55,106 nucleotides of DNA from contig JACNKZ010000029.1 of assembly GCA_014381785.1 (NCBI GenBank), forward strand, positions 1-55,106, given 5' to 3'. Positions within the stretch are counted from its first letter, which is position 1; every line of letters begins with the position of its first letter. Both the position numbers and the translations under genes were made by a program. The notes under the pieces were generated by a model. It was not told where the DNA came from, ran no database searches, and was given only the letters and a program-made list of their open reading frames with translations. The stretch comes from Kiritimatiellota bacterium. Its GTDB lineage: Bacteria; Verrucomicrobiota; Kiritimatiellia; Kiritimatiellales; Tichowtungiaceae. Positions 25,813-47,300 of this stretch are shown here, one piece after another.

Positions 25813-26478
25813 TTAGTCAGCTATGGGTACGGGTTGCTTAATATAGTTCTCCTTGAACTGTTTGAGAAATTCAGAATCTACATCCCAATGTGATTTTTCA
25901 AGAAAGGTTCCTGTTTCCAGCATTAACCAAAGATGCGCGGTTAGGGAGTCAACAAAATGATGATCGTTGGGGTTAAGCTTCCTCGCTATTTCTTTGTCAT
26001 TAATGATCCCGTGGGCATCACAGGTTCCTGCTTTCTCCCATAAATTAAGGTTTTTAACTGCAATGCTCTTTGGGAATTCGGCTCTGTCAATCCTATCCCA
26101 TTTGCTATTTTTAGTGTTGTAGCGATATAGCTTGCTGTTCGAAAGTTTCTCGGTGAAAAACGATTTCGTCCAAATGTAAAAATCGCCCTCATATTTATTA
26201 AGTAACAACCAAATTTCATCGCTTTTCATTGAAATTGTTTTGTTGGCATATTCAAAACTGTATTCATAAGTATGTTTTTTCCCGAAGGAAATATATCCAT
26301 GAAAAATGAACGGGACGGAGGTTCCTCGGGGAGATGTAATTATTTCATTTAAAGTAATAGTTTCTCCGCTGAAGAGCTTTACCGAGTCTGAGTAATGGGA
26401 TGTTTCATATCGAAGGGAGGCGCATCCAAATAACGGCAAACTGAAAATGAGCAAGCCTAGTATCATTTTAGTCTTCAT
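25813..26478 (-). CDS. Lipoprotein, candidate immunity partner of the RHS mini-toxin
   Basis: This 221-residue protein has a lipobox (LLIFSLPLFGC, Cys19) and an otherwise unrecognised, AT-rich and aromatic-rich sequence with YEYSFEYANK, WDRIDRAEF and an alpha-helical tail. No family assigned. Its start overlaps the end of the upstream RHS-core gene by 11 bases, so it is made with it. Position directly after a probable exported hydrolase, plus membrane anchoring in the periplasm, fits an immunity protein; this is inference. It is the last gene of the three-gene cassette. Confidence 0.7.
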   Translation of the reverse strand: MKTKMILGLLIFSLPLFGCASLRYETSHYSDSVKLFSGETITLNEIITSPRGTSVPFIFHGYISFGKKHTYEYSFEYANKTISMKSDEIWLLLNKYEGDFYIWTKSFFTEKLSNSKLYRYNTKNSKWDRIDRAEFPKSIAVKNLNLWEKAGTCDAHGIINDKEIARKLNPNDHHFVDSLTAHLWLMLETGTFLEKSHWDVDSEFLKQFKENYIKQPVPIAD

Positions 26479-27268
26479 CGGAATTATCCTCTTCGAGTTT
26501 TAAGTCCTTAAACTCTGTTCCTGCGCGAACCTCTGGTTTCTCAACGGTGTTCAAGACATTTTCATTTAGGTATGTTTCAACTTCAGGCCATGGCGCATCG
26601 TTTTCTGTTAACTTCATTAAACCAGCCGTGGCGTCGATAGACTGTTGGATTTCAGGCCTAATGTTACCTTCATCATCTTTTAGCCTATCCAGTTCCTTAT
26701 GACGCTCACTTCCATCTTTCAGCTGTTTTTGAGCTTCATAATCGAGAAAGGCCTCAATTTCACCTTCGCTATTTCTATCTGCATGCCCGGGAGCGAAAGT
26801 ATCCTCGACCATGTGGTACAATTTACCTAGGCCATCGCTTCCTCCTTTTTCATACCACTCCTTTGCCTGAGTCATCATTTTATCTCTTGTCTCCTTTGCT
26901 GATCCTCCTACTGCAGTGCTATGCTTGAAATTGTTTTCTTTGTTAAAATGAGATGCACGAATATCTGCTCGTGTGGATGCTCCACGAACGCGGCTCATTC
27001 TTTTGAACACATTCATTTTAACTCCACTCTGTTTTATTGCGTTTTTTGTAATGTATTGATGAACTCTTCCGCCAAAACCTGGCGCCACTCCCCATAAACC
27101 TTGAGGATCAATTTTGTTAATGGGATTACCATGAACATAGCAATATTGATTTGGCCCATCTTGGAATCCGGCTGGGTCTCGGGTCAGAAACGTTCCAGTT
27201 TCTTGGTCCCGATACCCATAAGATACAGAGCAAGATAATAGTAAAAGTAGTATTATGTGTTTTCTCAT
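26468..27268 (-). CDS. Secreted mini-RHS protein with phospholipase C/P1 nuclease-like C-terminal domain
   Basis: 266 residues. Residues 1-18 are a Sec signal (IILLLLLSCSVSYG; LLSC could also be a weak lipobox). Residues 19-58 are only the tip of an RHS core: YRDQETGTFLTRDPAGF, NQYCYVHGNP, then the DPQGL cleavage motif. The large YD-repeat cage is absent. Residues 60-266 resemble zinc-dependent phospholipase C/P1 nuclease: VHQYITKNAI (His70), ASHF (His107) and YHMVEDTFAPGHADRN with His152-x3-Asp156-x5-His162. That spacing equals the His118/Asp122/His128 spacing of the PLC zinc signature. The ATG overlaps the stop of the upstream transglutaminase-like gene. Probably an exported toxin or hydrolase. 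Confidence 0.68.
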   Translation of the reverse strand: MRKHIILLLLLSCSVSYGYRDQETGTFLTRDPAGFQDGPNQYCYVHGNPINKIDPQGLWGVAPGFGGRVHQYITKNAIKQSGVKMNVFKRMSRVRGASTRADIRASHFNKENNFKHSTAVGGSAKETRDKMMTQAKEWYEKGGSDGLGKLYHMVEDTFAPGHADRNSEGEIEAFLDYEAQKQLKDGSERHKELDRLKDDEGNIRPEIQQSIDATAGLMKLTENDAPWPEVETYLNENVLNTVEKPEVRAGTEFKDLKLEEDNSDED

Positions 27269-28173
27269 AATTCGTTTCCTTCTGATTTTAAAATTTTAAG
27301 GCGGGTTATTCGTAAGCTGGTTATCTGTGAATTAGGGAAAATTTGTTGAGCAATCTCCTCGCAAAATAGTGCTTCATCATATCGCTGATGCTCTTGAAAA
27401 CATATGGCTCTTAGAGATGCAAAGATTCCGAGCATCTCTTTGTTGGTTGAATTTTTCATCATGCACTCTTCTGCGATTTCTTTTTTGGAAATAGGGCGAG
27501 GGAAGTTTAGATAATATTCGTCATTTTCAGTTTTGACTCCCTTGTTATTGGTGATGTCAAAGTTGAACCGTTCGATCCCATCATCCCAGCGCACAAACAT
27601 GTGTCCGCTACACTTAACAAGGTGAAGTGGATATTCACAACGTCTGCCGAGTACAACCATCAAAACCGGCATGGATGAGCATGTGCCTTTGAGGTCGTTG
27701 ATTAGGCCATTGATAAATATATTGGATGAATCATGGAAAAACCTTGTGCTGGTTCGATCTTCCATTGCTCCAGATTCATACAACTCCATATTGTAGTCGC
27801 ATTTAAAATCATCTTGGATTGCAAATCCCAAATAGGCTCCTTTAAACAGAGCCATCGAATTTTTGTATTTCTCTTTGTATTTAAAAAATACAGGGAGGCT
27901 TTGTTGTTCACGTAATTTCACATGTTGTGCCCATTGGTCCAGTTTCAAAAGGCATTGCTCAATATCAAGATCTTCCGACCCCGGAAGACCTTTGGCGCAA
28001 AGTAGATTCATGCGAGCAATGTCGAAATTTTCAATCTCCTCATCTGACAGTTGGATTAACTCTTCAAAGGTCTGGGGTATTTGGGGCGTCTTGTTTTTCT
28101 GGTATGCAAATGCGATTCCGCCGACAATGGTTAGCGCAATCACAGAAGCTATAATGTGCTTATTAATTTTCAT
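27265..28173 (-). CDS. Exported transglutaminase-like (SirB1-type) protein
   Basis: 302 residues with an N-terminal signal/anchor (HIIASVIALTIVGGIAFAY). A papain-fold catalytic arrangement of the transglutaminase/SirB1 type is visible: Cys165 in GTCSSMPVLMVVLGRRC, His191 in CSGHMFVRWDDG, Asp206 in FNFDIT. A helical C-terminal tail (EHQRYDEALFCEEIAQQ) looks TPR-like. It is first in the cassette, overlapping the RHS mini-toxin gene by four bases (ATGA). Bases are clearly AT-richer than surrounding housekeeping genes, suggesting transfer. It may process or cross-link the co-made RHS protein. The function is inferred. Confidence 0.65.
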   Translation of the reverse strand: MKINKHIIASVIALTIVGGIAFAYQKNKTPQIPQTFEELIQLSDEEIENFDIARMNLLCAKGLPGSEDLDIEQCLLKLDQWAQHVKLREQQSLPVFFKYKEKYKNSMALFKGAYLGFAIQDDFKCDYNMELYESGAMEDRTSTRFFHDSSNIFINGLINDLKGTCSSMPVLMVVLGRRCEYPLHLVKCSGHMFVRWDDGIERFNFDITNNKGVKTENDEYYLNFPRPISKKEIAEECMMKNSTNKEMLGIFASLRAICFQEHQRYDEALFCEEIAQQIFPNSQITSLRITRLKILKSEGNEL

Positions 28174-28532
28174 TTGTAATTTCGAACGTTGAGTTGGGCG
28201 GCCTGTTTTTCTTTAAATCCATCCGGTTTATATGGCGGTCAGCTTATATTCCGGAAGATTAACTTAAAAGGCAAATGACTGGTAAAGAGTCGGCTTTTAG
28301 GGAGGGGAGAACTTTCAGCCACAAAAAACACAAGAACCCACAAAGAGCAGAGTGTTGACCTTTTCGTGAACTCTTGTGCTTTTTGTGGCCAATCCCAATC
28401 CTTCCCGGTTTCCAACGTTGGGAACTCACGGAAAGGGGCCTTCCGCGATTTTTGTGCTTTCTTCGCGGCTTTGCGGTTAAATCCTGATTCCAGAGCTTTA
28501 AAACATGGGTCAATGGGGCTATATTGCGCGGC
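28174..28532. other. Repeat-rich region between the RHS cassette and nadA
   Basis: No gene. It holds two tracts of the CACAAAAAACACAAGAACC / TTTTTGTGCTTTCTTCGCGG family in inverted arrangement (28314-28392 and 28437-28486) and a degenerate palindrome TTCCAACGTTGGGAA (28410-28424). The divergent promoters of the cassette (minus) and nadA (plus) must be inside. Confidence 0.55.
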
Positions 28533-29438
28533 ATGAAGTCGATTGAAGAACAGATTCAGGAGCTGAAGGCGCAGCGCGGAGCAGTGATTCTGGCGCATAA
28601 CTATCAGTTGGATGAAGTACAGGCCATCGCGGATTTTACCGGCGATTCGCTGGAGCTCAGCCGTAAAGCCGCACAGATGACCGAGGAGGTCATTGTGTTC
28701 TGCGGCGTCCATTTTATGGCCGAGACCGCCGCAATCCTGTCGCCCGAAAAAACCATTTTGATTCCCGACCCCAATGCGGGCTGCCCGATGGCCGACATGG
28801 TCACCGCCGAGCAGCTACGCGCACTGAAGGCGAAGCATCCCGGCGCGAAGGTGGTCTGTTATGTCAACAGCTCGGCTGAGGTGAAGGCGGAGAGCGATAT
28901 CTGCTGCACCTCGTCGAATGCGGTGAAGGTCTGCGAGTCACTTGGCGATGTGCAGATACTTTTTGTGCCGGACCGCAATCTCGGCGCGTTCGTGGCCGAG
29001 AAGCTGGGCAAAGAGTTTGTTTTGTATAACGGGTTCTGCCCGACGCATGAGCGCATCCGCGATGTGGATGTGAAGGCGATGAAGGAGAAATATCCCGAGG
29101 CGGTGGTGATGGCGCATCCGGAGTGCAGCAGGCCGGTGCGTGAGCTGGCCGATGAGCTGCTTTCGACCGGGCAGATGTGCCACTACGCCAAGGCGTCTGA
29201 GAAAAAAGAATTTATTGTCGCCACCGAGCTGGGTATTAACTACCGCCTGCGCACGGAAAACCCGGGCAAGTCGTTCTATCCGGTCAATCCCGACCGCGCG
29301 GTCTGCCCGAATATGAAGAAAATCACTCTCGAAAAAATCCTCTGGTCGCTGCAGGACATGAAGGAGAGGGTGACCGTTGAGCCCGATATCGCCGCCCGCG
29401 CAGTGGGCTCCATTCAACGTATGCTGGAAATTGTGTGA
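28533..29438 (+). CDS. nadA: Quinolinate synthase A
   Basis: This 301-residue 4Fe-4S enzyme condenses iminoaspartate with dihydroxyacetone phosphate to quinolinate for NAD synthesis. The three cluster cysteines are in VIVFCGVHFMAE, NGFCPTHERI and RAVCPNMKKI. VILAHNYQ and AIADFTGDSLELSR at the N-terminus, SDICCTSSNA and AHPECSRPV are further hallmarks. ATG 28533 gives MKSIEEQIQEL; a TTG nine bases earlier is also possible. No clear Shine-Dalgarno site. nadB and nadC are not nearby. Confidence 0.96.
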   Translation: MKSIEEQIQELKAQRGAVILAHNYQLDEVQAIADFTGDSLELSRKAAQMTEEVIVFCGVHFMAETAAILSPEKTILIPDPNAGCPMADMVTAEQLRALKAKHPGAKVVCYVNSSAEVKAESDICCTSSNAVKVCESLGDVQILFVPDRNLGAFVAEKLGKEFVLYNGFCPTHERIRDVDVKAMKEKYPEAVVMAHPECSRPVRELADELLSTGQMCHYAKASEKKEFIVATELGINYRLRTENPGKSFYPVNPDRAVCPNMKKITLEKILWSLQDMKERVTVEPDIAARAVGSIQRMLEIV

Positions 29439-43597: not shown

Positions 43598-44608
43598 GTG
43601 AGTCGCTACATTCTTCGAATGCTTCTTGCCGATCCATATGCCCGGAAAAAATCGAGATCCCCCTCGAAAAACCGCGTCTGGAATTTTTTCGACCCTTCAA
43701 AGTCTTTTGCCGGTGATCTCTCCTCTAAAACCCAATGTTCGCAATGGGAAAAACCGGAATCGGCTACGACAACTGCGTCGGAACACAGTTACTTCGCACT
43801 CTACGAGGCGTATGGAACAAGACCGTACGAATGGGGCGACGATCCCGACCGCCAAAAGGCCAACACCAAAGAAGAAGAAACCGATCTAGGCCTCCTAAAC
43901 GAAGGTATGCGCTACCGCGATTTGGAGACAGGTACCTTCACGACTCGCGACCCTATCGGCTACGCTGACGGTCCAAACATCTACTGCTACGTTCACTGTA
44001 ACCCGATTACCAAATTCGATGCGTTTGGGTTAGAAATGAAATTTGTTAATGCAGATGGTTCGCCAAACGATTGGGCTAGCGGGATGTGGAATGATACAAA
44101 AGGATCTTTATCTGTGGATATGGTTAATGAAATGGATTCTGCGGATACAATGACAGTAGTTTTTGTTGTTGATAATCACAAAGATGTTGAAGTGGGGCAG
44201 TATTCGGAAGAAACCACTTACCAAATCATTGATAAGACTGATTTGCTCGCTGCGGAAGAAGGTACGCCTATGACCACTGCGAGCTTATTCCTTCATGAAG
44301 CTGTCGAGGGGTATGGCGCCCAAAACGAGGGTTTAAAGTACCCGGAGGCTCATAAGCAGGCGAGTGCGACAGAGGGCTTAGTGACAGGTTGGACTCGTGC
44401 AGAAAGTACGCTCTGGACTCCAATATGCGATGACAATGGAGAGCGGACCGGAGGGAAGCAAATGAAAACCAACTATCATCGCGAAATTGATGGAGGTATT
44501 CAAGATGCCACTGTTACGGTAACATCGGATCCAAAAGGAAACATCTCCTACTCAACCATCTATCACGAGGTGTTGAAACCGCCCGTGGAAGAGTCTGCGG
44601 AAGAATAA
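43598..44608 (+). CDS. Orphan RHS core tip with zincin-like C-terminal domain
   Basis: 336 codons from GTG 43598; the true start is uncertain. Only from about residue 62 (base 43781) is RHS homology seen: LYEAYGTRPYEWGDDPDRQK, then GMRYRDLETGTFTTRDPIGY and YCYVHCNPITKFDAFGL, a degenerate DPxGL site. Residues 1-60 look like unrelated junction sequence. The tail is AT-richer and includes SLFLHEAVEGYG (His233, Glu234, Glu237) and YPEAHKQASATEG (His252, Glu259), a possible zinc-metalloprotease motif. No cage or signal peptide. A lipoprotein gene follows, so it is a candidate toxin tip or cassette. Confidence 0.55.
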   Translation: MSRYILRMLLADPYARKKSRSPSKNRVWNFFDPSKSFAGDLSSKTQCSQWEKPESATTTASEHSYFALYEAYGTRPYEWGDDPDRQKANTKEEETDLGLLNEGMRYRDLETGTFTTRDPIGYADGPNIYCYVHCNPITKFDAFGLEMKFVNADGSPNDWASGMWNDTKGSLSVDMVNEMDSADTMTVVFVVDNHKDVEVGQYSEETTYQIIDKTDLLAAEEGTPMTTASLFLHEAVEGYGAQNEGLKYPEAHKQASATEGLVTGWTRAESTLWTPICDDNGERTGGKQMKTNYHREIDGGIQDATVTVTSDPKGNISYSTIYHEVLKPPVEESAEE

Positions 44609-44665
44609 AATAGATGATGAATGTGTTTTTCGATATCTGCTAACGGCAGAGGAAGGTGCGCTGAA

Positions 44666-45142
44666 ATGAGAGCTGAGACTATGAGTAAATCGTTAAAACT
44701 GGTGAAGTTTTGTTTCTTACAGATTATTTTTTTTGCGCTCCTTTCATGCAGCACGATAGATAAGGATAATCTGATCGTTTCATCCAATGGTATTGGATTG
44801 GGGAATCATGAAATCTATTTTGGAGGGAGGTTCTGTGTTGTTGACGAGACAACTCAAATGTCGCCAGTAGTTAGCATTTATGATTTGGAATTTATAAAGG
44901 CAAAGGTTCAGGCGAAGCGGGAAAACCAGAAAACCTATGTAGATCAAGCTCCGAATCTCCCCCAGTTACCATCGTTAATGGGGGAACCCCTGTTGCCATC
45001 AGAAAAGACACTTGCACATATTATAGCGATGTACGAAAAAGGCGATTTGTTAATGTACTATGGTTGGGTTAATTGGGGGTGGGCATTGTGGCGAAACGGG
45101 GAAATCATACAATATTGGACTCTATCTTATTCTAGCTTATAG
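44666..45142 (+). CDS. Small lipoprotein, candidate immunity partner of the zincin RHS tip
   Basis: 158 residues from ATG 44666 (GGAAGG nearby); ATG 44681 (MSKSLKLVK) is an alternative. A lipobox is visible at IIFFALLSCS. The rest is unrecognised: GIGLGNHEIYFGGRFCVV, a Pro-rich middle (QAPNLPQLPSLMGEPLLP) and a Trp-rich end (YYGWVNWGWALWRNGE). Base use is AT-rich like the preceding RHS tail. The RHS-tip-then-lipoprotein order mirrors the cassette at 25813-27268, which supports an immunity role. This is inference. Confidence 0.55.
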   Translation: MRAETMSKSLKLVKFCFLQIIFFALLSCSTIDKDNLIVSSNGIGLGNHEIYFGGRFCVVDETTQMSPVVSIYDLEFIKAKVQAKRENQKTYVDQAPNLPQLPSLMGEPLLPSEKTLAHIIAMYEKGDLLMYYGWVNWGWALWRNGEIIQYWTLSYSSL

Positions 45143-45165
45143 AAAAGGGGAACGGGGTCAGGAAC

Positions 45166-45237
45166 GGGGTCAGTCCGATAATTTGACAATTGACGGGGTT
45201 GGCGAGTAGAACGGGGTCAGTCCGATAATTTGACAAT
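45166..45237. repeat. Two REP/left-end copies in tandem
   Basis: GGGGTCAGTCCGATAATTTG continues to ACAATT in the copy at 45166-45191 and to ACAAT at 45213-45237. The first is followed by TGACGGGGTTGGCGAG as at the left end of the intact element; the second runs directly into an RHS reading frame. Confidence 0.85.
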
Positions 45238-45651
45238 GGACGGGAGAATATACGACCCCGTGATCGGCCGGATGATCTCCCCCGATCCCTCCATCCAGTC
45301 CCCCGACAGCCTCCAGAGCTTCAATCGCTATTCCTATTGCTGGAACAACCCGCTCAGCAGGACGGATCCCAGCGGGTTTAGCACTGAAAGCCTGGCGACT
45401 GCAGTGGGCGCGCTGGACGACTATAAAAACCTTGCTGAACCGGCAGTGGCTCAGTCTATCTCCCCGCAGAACTCCGTCGTTGACTCCTCGCAGGAGAGTG
45501 GGTCGGGGAGCGATGTTGGCAGTAAATATAAAACCTATTGCGATGGCAAAGTCGTCCTCCCGGCGTGGGTGAATCCGGATCAACAATGTGGCGGACTCAT
45601 CGATGGCAAATACCCTTGGGAGCTAGGCTCCTATAACCCGGGAGTCGATGG
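45207..45651 (+). repeat. 445-base direct repeat, copy 1 (RHS core fragment)
   Basis: By eye it is identical to 45771-46215, with a period of 564 bases. It starts within TAGAACGGGGTCAG and ends at GGGAGTCGATGG. Because 564 is divisible by three, the reading frame is preserved across both copies. Confidence 0.9.
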
Positions 45652-46215
45652 TTGCAAGGACTACGGCGCTCCCACTCCAAACGATCGAAAATCAAACGAC
45701 AAAGCTGGCGCGAACAATGATTCGGGCAAAAATGGAAACGGCTCCGGCACCGGTGGCGGCGGAAACAAAGTAGAACGGGGTCAGTCCGATAATTTGACAA
45801 TGGACGGGAGAATATACGACCCCGTGATCGGCCGGATGATCTCCCCCGATCCCTCCATCCAGTCCCCCGACAGCCTCCAGAGCTTCAATCGCTATTCCTA
45901 TTGCTGGAACAACCCGCTCAGCAGGACGGATCCCAGCGGGTTTAGCACTGAAAGCCTGGCGACTGCAGTGGGCGCGCTGGACGACTATAAAAACCTTGCT
46001 GAACCGGCAGTGGCTCAGTCTATCTCCCCGCAGAACTCCGTCGTTGACTCCTCGCAGGAGAGTGGGTCGGGGAGCGATGTTGGCAGTAAATATAAAACCT
46101 ATTGCGATGGCAAAGTCGTCCTCCCGGCGTGGGTGAATCCGGATCAACAATGTGGCGGACTCATCGATGGCAAATACCCTTGGGAGCTAGGCTCCTATAA
46201 CCCGGGAGTCGATGG
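45230..46215 (+). pseudogene. Duplicated RHS core fragment joined by translated REP sequence
   Basis: Open from TTG 45230 through both repeats. Each unit reads MDGRIYDPVIGRMISPDPSI, NRYSYCWNNPLSRTDPSGF and a variable tail to GSYNPGVDG. This is the standard RHS repeat-associated core with its DPSG cleavage motif, so it is the 3' end of an RHS gene. The REP sequence replaces everything upstream of MDGRIYDP. Copy 1 continues for 120 bases with a Gly/Asn-rich linker (NDSGKNGNGSGTGGGGNK) before the REP (ERGQSDNLT) leads into copy 2. No proper start signals exist, so expression is doubtful. Confidence 0.7.
45771..46215 (+). repeat. 445-base direct repeat, copy 2
   Basis: Second identical copy. It begins with a REP sequence (45777-45801) and is cut at GTCGATGG by the left end of the transposase element. 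The lack of visible differences implies a recent duplication. Confidence 0.9.
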
Positions 46216-46220
46216 GGAAC

Positions 46221-47300
46221 GGGGTCAGTCCGATAATTTGACAATTGACGGGGTTGGCGAGGGTCGTTAGATTGCGCGTATGGCACGAAAGATAAGGATT
46301 CAATACCCCGGCGCGGTTTATCATGTGATGAGTCGCGGAAATCATCAGGATGCGATTTTCCGCGATGATAAGGATTGTGAGATATTTTCAGATACGTTGG
46401 GCGAAGTGTGCATCAAGACCGGCTGGTTGGTGCACGCTTTTGTTTTGATGGGGAATCATTATCACCTGTTGGTGGAAACACCCGCCGCCAATCTGGTGGA
46501 GGGAATGAAGTGGCTGCAAGGAACCTACACTCAGCGGTTTAATGCCCGGCATAAGGTGTGGGGGCATCTGTTACAGGGGCGTTATAAAGCTCTGGTGGTT
46601 GACCGTTCCGAAAGCGGCTATTTTACAGCCGTCAGTAATTATATTCATTTGAACCCGGCGCGGGCCGGTCTGTTCAATTTACAGAGCGGGTCGCTGTCCG
46701 ATTACCGCTGGAGCAGTTATCCGGGATATATAAAGCCATCCAAACGGCCGGAGTGGCTTTGTGTCCGGCGTACGCTGGGCAATCTGAACTGTGCAGATGA
46801 TTCGAATGGTTTGTCCATGTATCGGCGGATCATGCGGAAGAGGGTTCTGGAGATCGCTCATTGCGATAATCCCCGCGAAGCAGATTCTGAGTGGGAGGCC
46901 ATTCGGAAGGGCTGGTGTTTCGGAGCGGAAGGATTTCAAAAAGAACTGATGAGGCATGTTCAAAAAGCCACAAGTCGTGTCCGCAAAGATTCGTTAGAGG
47001 GTAATGCGCTGCGAAGTTACGATCAGCAGGCTGCGGAAAATCTGTTGCGTCCTATGTTGAAGGAGCTAGGTGTTCAAGAGGCGGATTTGCAAACACTGCC
47101 TAAGGGGGCTCGTGAGAAGAAGCTGCTGGCGTGGGGGTTTCGAACTTTTACCACGGTGAGCCGGGAATGGATTACACAGCGGCTCAATATGGGACATGTT
47201 TCAAGAGTTACGCAAAGCGTCAATGAGGTGAACCGAAACGCGGAGTATCAGGATGGAAAGCTGCAACTGCAGAAAATTGTCAAATTATCGGACTGACCCC
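46221..47300 (+). mobile_element. REP-associated tyrosine transposase element with 26-base inverted ends
   Basis: Left end 46221-46246 and right end 47275-47300 are exact 26-base inverted copies (GGGGTCAGTCCGATAATTTG plus ACAATT). The element is about 1.08 kb and carries one gene. The transposase stop codon lies inside the right end. Further solitary end sequences occur at 41579, 45166, 45213 and 45777. Confidence 0.85.
46280..47296 (+). CDS. REP-associated tyrosine (Y1) transposase
   Basis: 338 residues. The N-terminal Y1_Tnp domain has MARKIRIQYPGAVYHVMSRG, then FVLMGNHYHLLVETP with the HxH (HYH) metal motif and QGTYTQRFNARHK carrying the likely Tyr nucleophile, followed by GHLLQGRYKALVV and YIHLNPARAGL. 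The C-terminal part includes a helix-turn-helix-like tail (SREWITQRLNMGHVSRVTQ). This is the RAYT family, which acts on single-stranded hairpin (REP) sequences. The protein tail KIVKLSD is encoded by the element end itself. All visible catalytic residues are intact, so it is likely active. Confidence 0.93.
   Translation: MARKIRIQYPGAVYHVMSRGNHQDAIFRDDKDCEIFSDTLGEVCIKTGWLVHAFVLMGNHYHLLVETPAANLVEGMKWLQGTYTQRFNARHKVWGHLLQGRYKALVVDRSESGYFTAVSNYIHLNPARAGLFNLQSGSLSDYRWSSYPGYIKPSKRPEWLCVRRTLGNLNCADDSNGLSMYRRIMRKRVLEIAHCDNPREADSEWEAIRKGWCFGAEGFQKELMRHVQKATSRVRKDSLEGNALRSYDQQAAENLLRPMLKELGVQEADLQTLPKGAREKKLLAWGFRTFTTVSREWITQRLNMGHVSRVTQSVNEVNRNAEYQDGKLQLQKIVKLSD

What the first reader, a model, noticed from the sequence alone, without database searches (positions are those of the whole stretch)
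25813..28173. Three-gene cassette: transglutaminase-like protein, secreted mini-RHS phospholipase/nuclease, lipoprotein
Seen: overlapping genes (4 and 11 bases), signal peptides on all three, a Cys165/His191/Asp206 triad, an RHS core tip of only about 40 residues placed directly after a signal peptide, and a His-x3-Asp-x5-His zinc signature. RHS toxins usually need the large cage for folding and release; here the cage is gone and the tip alone is exported by Sec, with a papain-fold partner instead. This could be a compact toxin or nutrient-enzyme system with a lipoprotein immunity factor and a dedicated processing enzyme. No such system is known to me.
Basis: partly seen in the sequence, partly recalled or inferred. 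Interest (0 to 1): 0.78.

Follow-up and report, generated by a model that had tools for sequence, protein, structure and literature searches.

The report
Cage-less RHS toxin with transglutaminase partner
A three-gene bacterial cassette makes a small exported toxin built on the tip of an RHS "toxin cage", a lipoprotein that very probably protects the producer, and a dedicated transglutaminase-like enzyme; the enzyme-plus-tip pair recurs in many bacteria with a different toxin end almost every time, an arrangement of bacterial toxins for which I found no description.

Summary
On the minus strand lie tgl (27265-28173), mini-RHS (26468-27268) and a lipoprotein gene (25813-26478), at the lowest GC of the window (40% against 54%).

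At 21 other Verrucomicrobiota and IMG/VR sites (15 with complete tgl), tgl neighbours a gene for signal peptide + ~40-residue RHS tip + variable C-terminus. C-termini are nearly all different; in one pair 98.5% identical DNA breaks off at the tip's RDP motif, so they are swapped. Tgl keeps Cys/His/acid in 21/21 sequences. The tip keeps both aspartates of the Rhs autoprotease in 30/32, without the cage.

The window's C-terminus is a zinc-PLC/P1-like domain also found on VgrG/DUF4280 spike effectors and ordinary RHS proteins. Its lipoprotein is homologous to the gene downstream of that domain in Tenacibaculum, Aquimarina and a Saccharospirillaceae bacterium: a toxin-immunity pair shared between carriers.

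In rhizobia the same module follows a separate RHS/TcdB cage gene, once beside a type II secretion operon. I call it a new variant of RHS polymorphic toxins. What Tgl does to the tip, and the toxin's activity, are untested.

The parts
27265..28173 (-). tgl: exported transglutaminase-like (papain-fold) protein with TPR-like C-terminus, 302 aa; triad Cys165, His191, Asp206 (Glu in most relatives)
   Evidence: Transglut_core2 in 7/7 members, best E 8e-7; Cys/His invariant and position 206 acidic in 21/21; TPR-like hits
26468..27268 (-). mini-RHS toxin gene, 266 aa: signal peptide + RHS tip + toxin domain
27215..27268 (-). signal peptide of the mini-RHS protein (residues 1-18)
   Evidence: sequence MRKHIILLLLLSCSVSYG
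27095..27214 (-). RHS tip (residues 19-58) with Asp31 (TRDP) and Asp54 (DPQGL), the counterparts of the Rhs autoprotease dyad
   Evidence: TIGR03696 E 4e-11; invariant R30, D31, P32, D54, G57; dyad in 30/32 relatives; RhsA D1324/D1346 (PMC8765631)
26471..27094 (-). toxin domain (residues 59-266), zinc-dependent PLC/P1-like; His70, Asp102, His107, His116, His152, Asp156, His162, His190, Asp194
   Evidence: family alignment of 13 members; Zn_dep_PLPC in 9/13 members; shared with VgrG/DUF4280 effectors
25813..26478 (-). lipoprotein, putative immunity protein, 221 aa
   Evidence: homologue directly downstream of the toxin domain in Tenacibaculum, Aquimarina and Saccharospirillaceae

Best explanation
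A polymorphic toxin-immunity cassette. All three products are exported by Sec. The mini-RHS protein is a small cartridge: an RHS tip that keeps the autoprotease dyad and the DPxGL motif but has no cage, followed by an exchangeable toxin domain. Tgl is the constant partner and, by elimination, serves the constant part, the tip: most likely it cuts at or near DPxGL, or fixes the tip to a surface or carrier protein, so that the C-terminus is released or displayed. In the window the C-terminus is a zinc-dependent phospholipase C/P1-type hydrolase expected to attack the envelope of neighbouring cells from the periplasmic side; the lipoprotein neutralises it in the producer. Shown by sequence: gene order, tgl/tip linkage, C-terminus exchange, conserved triad and dyad, and pairing of toxin domain and lipoprotein family across carriers. 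Inferred: export, toxicity, immunity, substrates, and the route out of the cell (one rhizobial relative points to type II secretion).
For: Toxin domain and lipoprotein family adjacent on a DUF4280 spike effector in Tenacibaculum and Aquimarina and on an RHS protein in Saccharospirillaceae; domain fused to VgrG in Zooshikella. tgl next to signal-peptide + RHS-tip + variable C-terminus at 21 further sites. About 25 unrelated C-termini among 28 mini-RHS proteins. DNA 98.5% identical through tgl up to the tip's RDP motif and then unrelated C-terminus. Small lipoprotein or membrane-protein gene just downstream in most Verrucomicrobiota loci. Tgl triad 21/21; tip dyad 30/32. Lowest GC of the window.
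Against: No experiment. Window protein alone does not reach the Zn_dep_PLPC cut-off; Foldseek not significant. Most other C-termini have no recognisable toxin domain. Tgl activity, substrate and even its contact with the tip are unknown. How the toxin leaves a cell with two membranes is not explained for the window organism.
Confidence: 0.74

Rival explanations
1. Split RHS toxin: the cage acts in trans. The mini-RHS cartridge is loaded into, or joined by Tgl to, an RHS/TcdB cage encoded elsewhere; the Verrucomicrobiota cassette is the cartridge half only.
For: In Rhizobium lentis and Neorhizobium a TcdB/RHS cage gene ends inside the tip and overlaps tgl, which is followed by signal peptide + tip + C-terminus. 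Tip keeps the dyad, which works inside the cage in RhsA.
Against: No cage gene beside tgl in the Verrucomicrobiota loci read; only one other RHS-repeat ORF in the window's genome (98% complete), and it has its own tip.
Confidence: 0.2
2. Secreted nutrient-scavenging hydrolase with accessory proteins, not a toxin.
Against: The C-terminus changes from copy to copy while tip and tgl stay; the domain and its lipoprotein partner occur behind VgrG and DUF4280 spike domains.
Confidence: 0.04
3. Decayed RHS remnant (orphan rhs tip) without function that happens to lie behind a signal sequence.
For: RHS tips are very common in the class (199 of 334 genomes) and the window holds other RHS fragments.
Against: Open, overlapping genes; in a set of 30 top tip loci the ORFs with a signal peptide directly before the tip were exactly those next to tgl (with the bias that the profile was built from such proteins); triad and dyad conserved.
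Confidence: 0.02

Closest known systems
Rhs polymorphic toxins with cage (T6SS RhsA; Tc toxin TcB/TcC)
   Same: RHS tip with autoprotease dyad and DPxGL-type motif, exchangeable C-terminal toxin, adjacent immunity gene
   Different: No cage; Sec signal directly before the tip; separate transglutaminase-like partner
Orphan rhs toxin-immunity modules (Salmonella, Serratia)
   Same: RHS tip + toxin end + immunity gene without the delivery part
   Different: Here each has its own signal peptide and a conserved enzyme partner, so it is probably exported as such
RHS toxins with an N-terminal inactive transglutaminase domain (Zhang et al. 2012, PMC3482391)
   Same: Transglutaminase fold linked to exported RHS toxins
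   Different: Here a separate gene with intact Cys/His/acid; no RHS repeats in the toxin
HET-C / zinc-PLC / S1-P1 toxin domains (Tox-HET-C, PMC3482391)
   Same: HxxxDxxxxxH and further His/Asp pattern; use in T6SS-type carriers
   Different: Distinct sequence family; Pfam HET-C is not matched; substrate unknown
T6SS-type VgrG/DUF4280 effectors of Flavobacteriaceae with the same C-terminus
   Same: Homologous toxin domain; in Tenacibaculum and Aquimarina also a homologous downstream gene
   Different: Delivered by a contractile spike, immunity protein anchored by a membrane segment rather than a lipid
Imm65 lipoprotein immunity (PMC3482391)
   Same: Immunity protein that is a lipoprotein
   Different: Imm65 goes with Tox-JAB-1; similarity to this lipoprotein was not tested directly, and no Pfam family matched it

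Membership tests
RHS-type polymorphic toxin system | Conserved N-terminal part with exchangeable C-termini | tested here: met
   About 25 unrelated C-termini among 28; exchange seen in DNA
RHS-type polymorphic toxin system | Immunity gene directly downstream | tested here: met
   Lipoprotein homologues track the toxin domain across carriers; small gene downstream in most loci. Protection itself not tested
Caged Rhs effector / Tc toxin | RHS-repeat cocoon in the same protein | tested here: not met
   Only residues 19-58 match RHS core; signal peptide directly before
Caged Rhs effector / Tc toxin | Aspartyl autoprotease dyad and DPxGL motif | tested here: met
   Asp31, Asp54; 30 of 32 relatives
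Caged Rhs effector / Tc toxin | Autoproteolytic release of the C-terminus | not testable with these tools
   Needs protein work
Zinc-dependent phospholipase C / S1-P1 superfamily | His/Asp zinc-ligand pattern | tested here: met
   Invariant or nearly invariant positions in 13 members; matching to the known ligands is from family knowledge
Zinc-dependent phospholipase C / S1-P1 superfamily | Pfam Zn_dep_PLPC above curated cut-off | tested here: not met
   Window protein E 0.18, 12.2 bits against 26.8; family members up to E 4.5e-6
Zinc-dependent phospholipase C / S1-P1 superfamily | Fold match to solved PLC/P1 structures | tested here: inconclusive
   All-helical model, pLDDT 68.8; Foldseek E above 2
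Transglutaminase-like (Transglut_core2 / SirB1 type) | Catalytic Cys-His-acid triad | tested here: met
   21 of 21
Transglutaminase-like (Transglut_core2 / SirB1 type) | Pfam Transglut_core2 above curated cut-off | tested here: inconclusive
   Window 21.5 bits against 23.5; all 7 members match, best E 8e-7
Inactive transglutaminase domain of RHS toxins (PMC3482391) | Domain fused to RHS repeats and triad lost | tested here: not met
   Separate gene, triad intact
T6SS effector | VgrG/PAAR/DUF4280 or similar carrier domain or neighbouring T6SS genes | tested here: not met
   Signal peptide instead of carrier domain; no such gene seen around the cassette in the ORF list, neighbours not all annotated

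The most novel reading that the evidence does not exclude
A modular export class in which RHS toxin tips are separate Sec-exported cartridges that a dedicated Cys-His-Glu/Asp transglutaminase-like enzyme joins, in the periplasm, to a carrier (an RHS/Tc-type cage in rhizobia, another surface structure in Verrucomicrobiota) for type II or related secretion, so that one carrier can be loaded with many toxins.
Probability: 0.18. Interest if true: 0.9.

Novelty: new variant of a known kind. Interest (0 to 1): 0.74.

Why it matters
RHS toxins are thought to need their large cage to carry and release the toxin. Here is a recurring form, in Verrucomicrobiota and in rhizobia, in which tip and toxin travel as a small separate protein with a constant enzyme partner. 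It makes two questions testable with small proteins: whether the RHS tip works without the cage, and whether a papain-fold enzyme can replace or assist it. It also gives a marker gene (tgl) for finding toxin-immunity pairs without known domains, and adds a lipoprotein immunity family shared with T6SS-type effectors.

Tried and rejected
Foldseek with the mini-RHS and Tgl models: nothing significant. A plant nuclease of the P1 fold (TBN1) and two clostridial PLC-fold entries appear among the noise hits, which I do not count; one search gave mainly TPR hits. Sequence searches of solved structures: no convincing relatives. PADLOC: none. Pfam on 20 other mini-RHS proteins and 10 downstream genes: almost nothing, except an S26 peptidase after the mini-RHS gene in L082. 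Idea that autocleavage after DPQGL exposes Trp59 as an N-terminal zinc ligand, as in PLC/P1 enzymes: attractive, but Trp59 is not kept in the T6SS-borne homologues and Trp after this motif also stands before a metalloprotease C-terminus in the same genome, so left as speculation. Search for a cage in the own genome: one other RHS-repeat ORF, with its own tip. Viral contigs: no relative of the toxin domain; tgl is in eight IMG/VR contigs, whose viral nature I did not test. Phage records: no toxin domain, no tgl. Papers on short or split RHS proteins with a transglutaminase-like partner: none found in the open library.

Full report
OBSERVATION. The three minus-strand genes are as described: tgl 27265-28173 (302 aa), mini-RHS 26468-27268 (266 aa), lipoprotein 25813-26478 (221 aa), overlapping by 4 and 11 bases. 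All three begin with hydrophobic leaders; the third has a lipobox (LFGC). The mini-RHS protein matches TIGR03696 (RHS core) only over residues 19-58, E 4e-11, directly after the signal peptide. The cassette has the lowest GC of the 2.4-kb stretches of the window (0.402 against 0.545 for the window), which suggests acquisition from outside.

THE TOXIN DOMAIN AND ITS PARTNER. The mini-RHS C-terminus has no close relative in the genus or in 388 sampled genomes of the phylum but one weak hit in an Akkermansia-type RHS protein (L014) and, by tblastn, one hit in 7.3 Gb of plasmids: the C-terminus of a DUF4280 (PAAR-like) protein near a baseplate-V (VgrG-like) gene in Tenacibaculum finnmarkense. Searched independently, the window lipoprotein has a single hit in the same 7.3 Gb: the gene directly downstream of that effector (E 3e-3 over 94% of its length; pairwise 1e-10). 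A profile scan of genomes gave 15 loci, mostly Flavobacteriaceae (Aquimarina, Flavobacterium, Apibacter), Zooshikella (fused to VgrG), an epsilonproteobacterium, a Saccharospirillaceae RHS protein (broken in frame) and the Akkermansia RHS protein. Homologues of the lipoprotein follow the toxin in Aquimarina (two loci) and Saccharospirillaceae; a profile trained only on the flavobacterial ones finds the window lipoprotein at E 5e-15 and the Saccharospirillaceae one at E 5e-6 among 2,205 ORFs. In other flavobacterial loci a different small membrane protein sits there. Same toxin domain, same downstream family, three kinds of carrier: this is the strongest evidence that the window pair is a toxin and its immunity protein. 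The partners are lipoproteins or have one N-terminal membrane segment, which fits protection on the periplasmic side (inference).

WHAT THE DOMAIN IS. In the alignment of 13 members Asp102, His107, His116, His152, Asp156, His162, His190 and Asp194 (window numbering) are invariant and His70 nearly so. This resembles the ligand pattern of zinc-dependent phospholipase C and P1 nucleases (family knowledge; Zhang et al. relate HET-C toxins to the same fold, PMC3482391). Pfam Zn_dep_PLPC is matched by 9 of 13 members, best E 4.5e-6, but by the window protein only at 0.18. The model is all-helical (mean pLDDT 68.8, tip not confident); Foldseek was not significant. Phospholipase versus nuclease cannot be told from sequence.

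THE RECURRING UNIT. tgl has relatives in 9 of 388 sampled genomes of the phylum with one sequence as query, and in 15 of 346 of the class with a profile. The phylum is Verrucomicrobiota, since the protein of genome G062 (L014) is the same as in an Akkermansia record (L031). Flanks of these and of eight IMG/VR contigs were read. Apart from the window, 15 sites have a complete-looking tgl (L059, L060, L062, L064, L067, L068, L069, L071, L072, L073, L079, L080, L081, L082, L083), and every one has a signal-peptide + RHS-tip + variable-C-terminus gene as neighbour; six more with a broken or truncated tgl (L065, L070, L074, L075, L078, L084) have one too. Left out: near-identical copies (L061, L063, L066), contigs that end inside tgl (L077, L085, L086), a 109-aa tgl remnant without a tip nearby (L076), and a distant SirB1-like protein (L039). 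The tip gene usually overlaps the end of tgl or starts within a short distance; in L068, L078 and L080 it lies upstream with a small membrane-protein gene between. Among 28 mini-RHS C-termini only four pairs are related, in two clusters. L059 and L062 are 98.5% identical over tgl and the first 118 bases of mini-RHS and then unrelated: the break lies at the RDP motif of the tip. L069 and L072 carry three and two mini-RHS genes, some with near-identical starts and different ends. In most Verrucomicrobiota loci the next gene encodes a lipoprotein or membrane protein; in the IMG/VR group it mostly lacks such a segment.

THE TWO CONSTANT PARTS. Tgl: Cys165 and His191 are invariant in 21 of 21 aligned sequences and position 206 is Glu (18) or Asp (3); Transglut_core2 is matched by all 7 members tested, best E 8e-7, with TPR-like repeats at the C-terminus. 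Tip: the invariant columns of alignment A6 are Arg30, Asp31, Pro32, Asp54 and Gly57. Asp31 and Asp54 correspond in motif and spacing to the catalytic dyad of RhsA (D1324, D1346), which is needed there for release of the toxin (PMC8765631); the pair is present in 30 of 32 proteins, 23 residues apart in the window, 22 in RhsA. So the cage is gone but the cutting motif and its residues are kept.

RHIZOBIA. One tblastn hit led to Rhizobium lentis, then to R. leguminosarum, Neorhizobium and Mesorhizobium plasmids. In R. lentis and Neorhizobium a TcdB/RHS cage gene ends inside the tip (YDPAFGRF..KDD), overlaps tgl by 4 bp, and is followed by signal peptide + tip + C-terminus and a small gene. In Neorhizobium a type II secretion operon lies directly upstream; in R. 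leguminosarum a secretin-like ORF lies downstream (my reading). Hence the same module exists with and without a cage gene, and type II secretion is a candidate route.

MECHANISM. Shown: order, linkage, exchange, conserved residues, pairing. Inferred: because C-terminus and downstream gene change while tip and tgl do not, Tgl must serve the tip. I favour proteolytic release or attachment; the choice needs experiment. Cage-in-trans is the main rival.

NOVELTY. Polymorphic RHS toxins, orphan rhs modules, HET-C/PLC-like toxins and inactive transglutaminase domains in RHS toxins are known. A cage-less, Sec-exported tip-toxin with a separate, apparently active transglutaminase-like partner was not found in the open papers searched; most subscription papers were not searchable. 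New variant of a known kind.

Noticed in passing
window 43598-45142 (+): Second RHS-tip gene: truncated RHS core, tip and a C-terminus with an HExxx motif (HEAVEGYG), followed by another small lipoprotein gene (lipobox LLSC); same toxin-lipoprotein order as in the finding.
   Followed up: partly
window 45145-47296 (+): RHS tip fragment repeated in tandem between 'aacggggtcagtccgataatttgacaat' repeats, followed by a REP-associated-type transposase ORF (46280-47296).
   Followed up: no
window 28259-28534: Stretch upstream of tgl with 'cacaaagagc'-like short repeats that looks like a dispersed repeat.
   Followed up: no
L002 172-2825: Same genome: RHS protein with a metzincin-like C-terminus (HELGHNLGLRH), followed by a small lipoprotein gene.
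   Followed up: partly
L124 4647-15017 and L121 1350-9192: Neorhizobium: complete-looking type II secretion operon between an RHS gene and a split RHS cage-tgl-tip cluster.
   Followed up: partly
L082 6147-6677: The gene after mini-RHS encodes an S26 signal-peptidase-like protein (Pfam E 3.7e-19) where an immunity gene is expected.
   Followed up: no
L065 3854-6367: tgl reading frame is chimeric: its second half is replaced by unrelated sequence before a mini-RHS gene, apparently a recombination product.
   Followed up: no
L067 1-259: Mini-RHS tip runs into upstream RHS-core sequence, as if recombined with a resident RHS gene.
   Followed up: no
L017 5299-7063: Saccharospirillaceae RHS protein with the same PLC-like C-terminus is broken in frame; the lipoprotein gene behind it is intact.
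   Followed up: no
L059-L066: tgl and mini-RHS arrays in contigs listed as viral by IMG/VR; nothing checked that they are viral.
   Followed up: no
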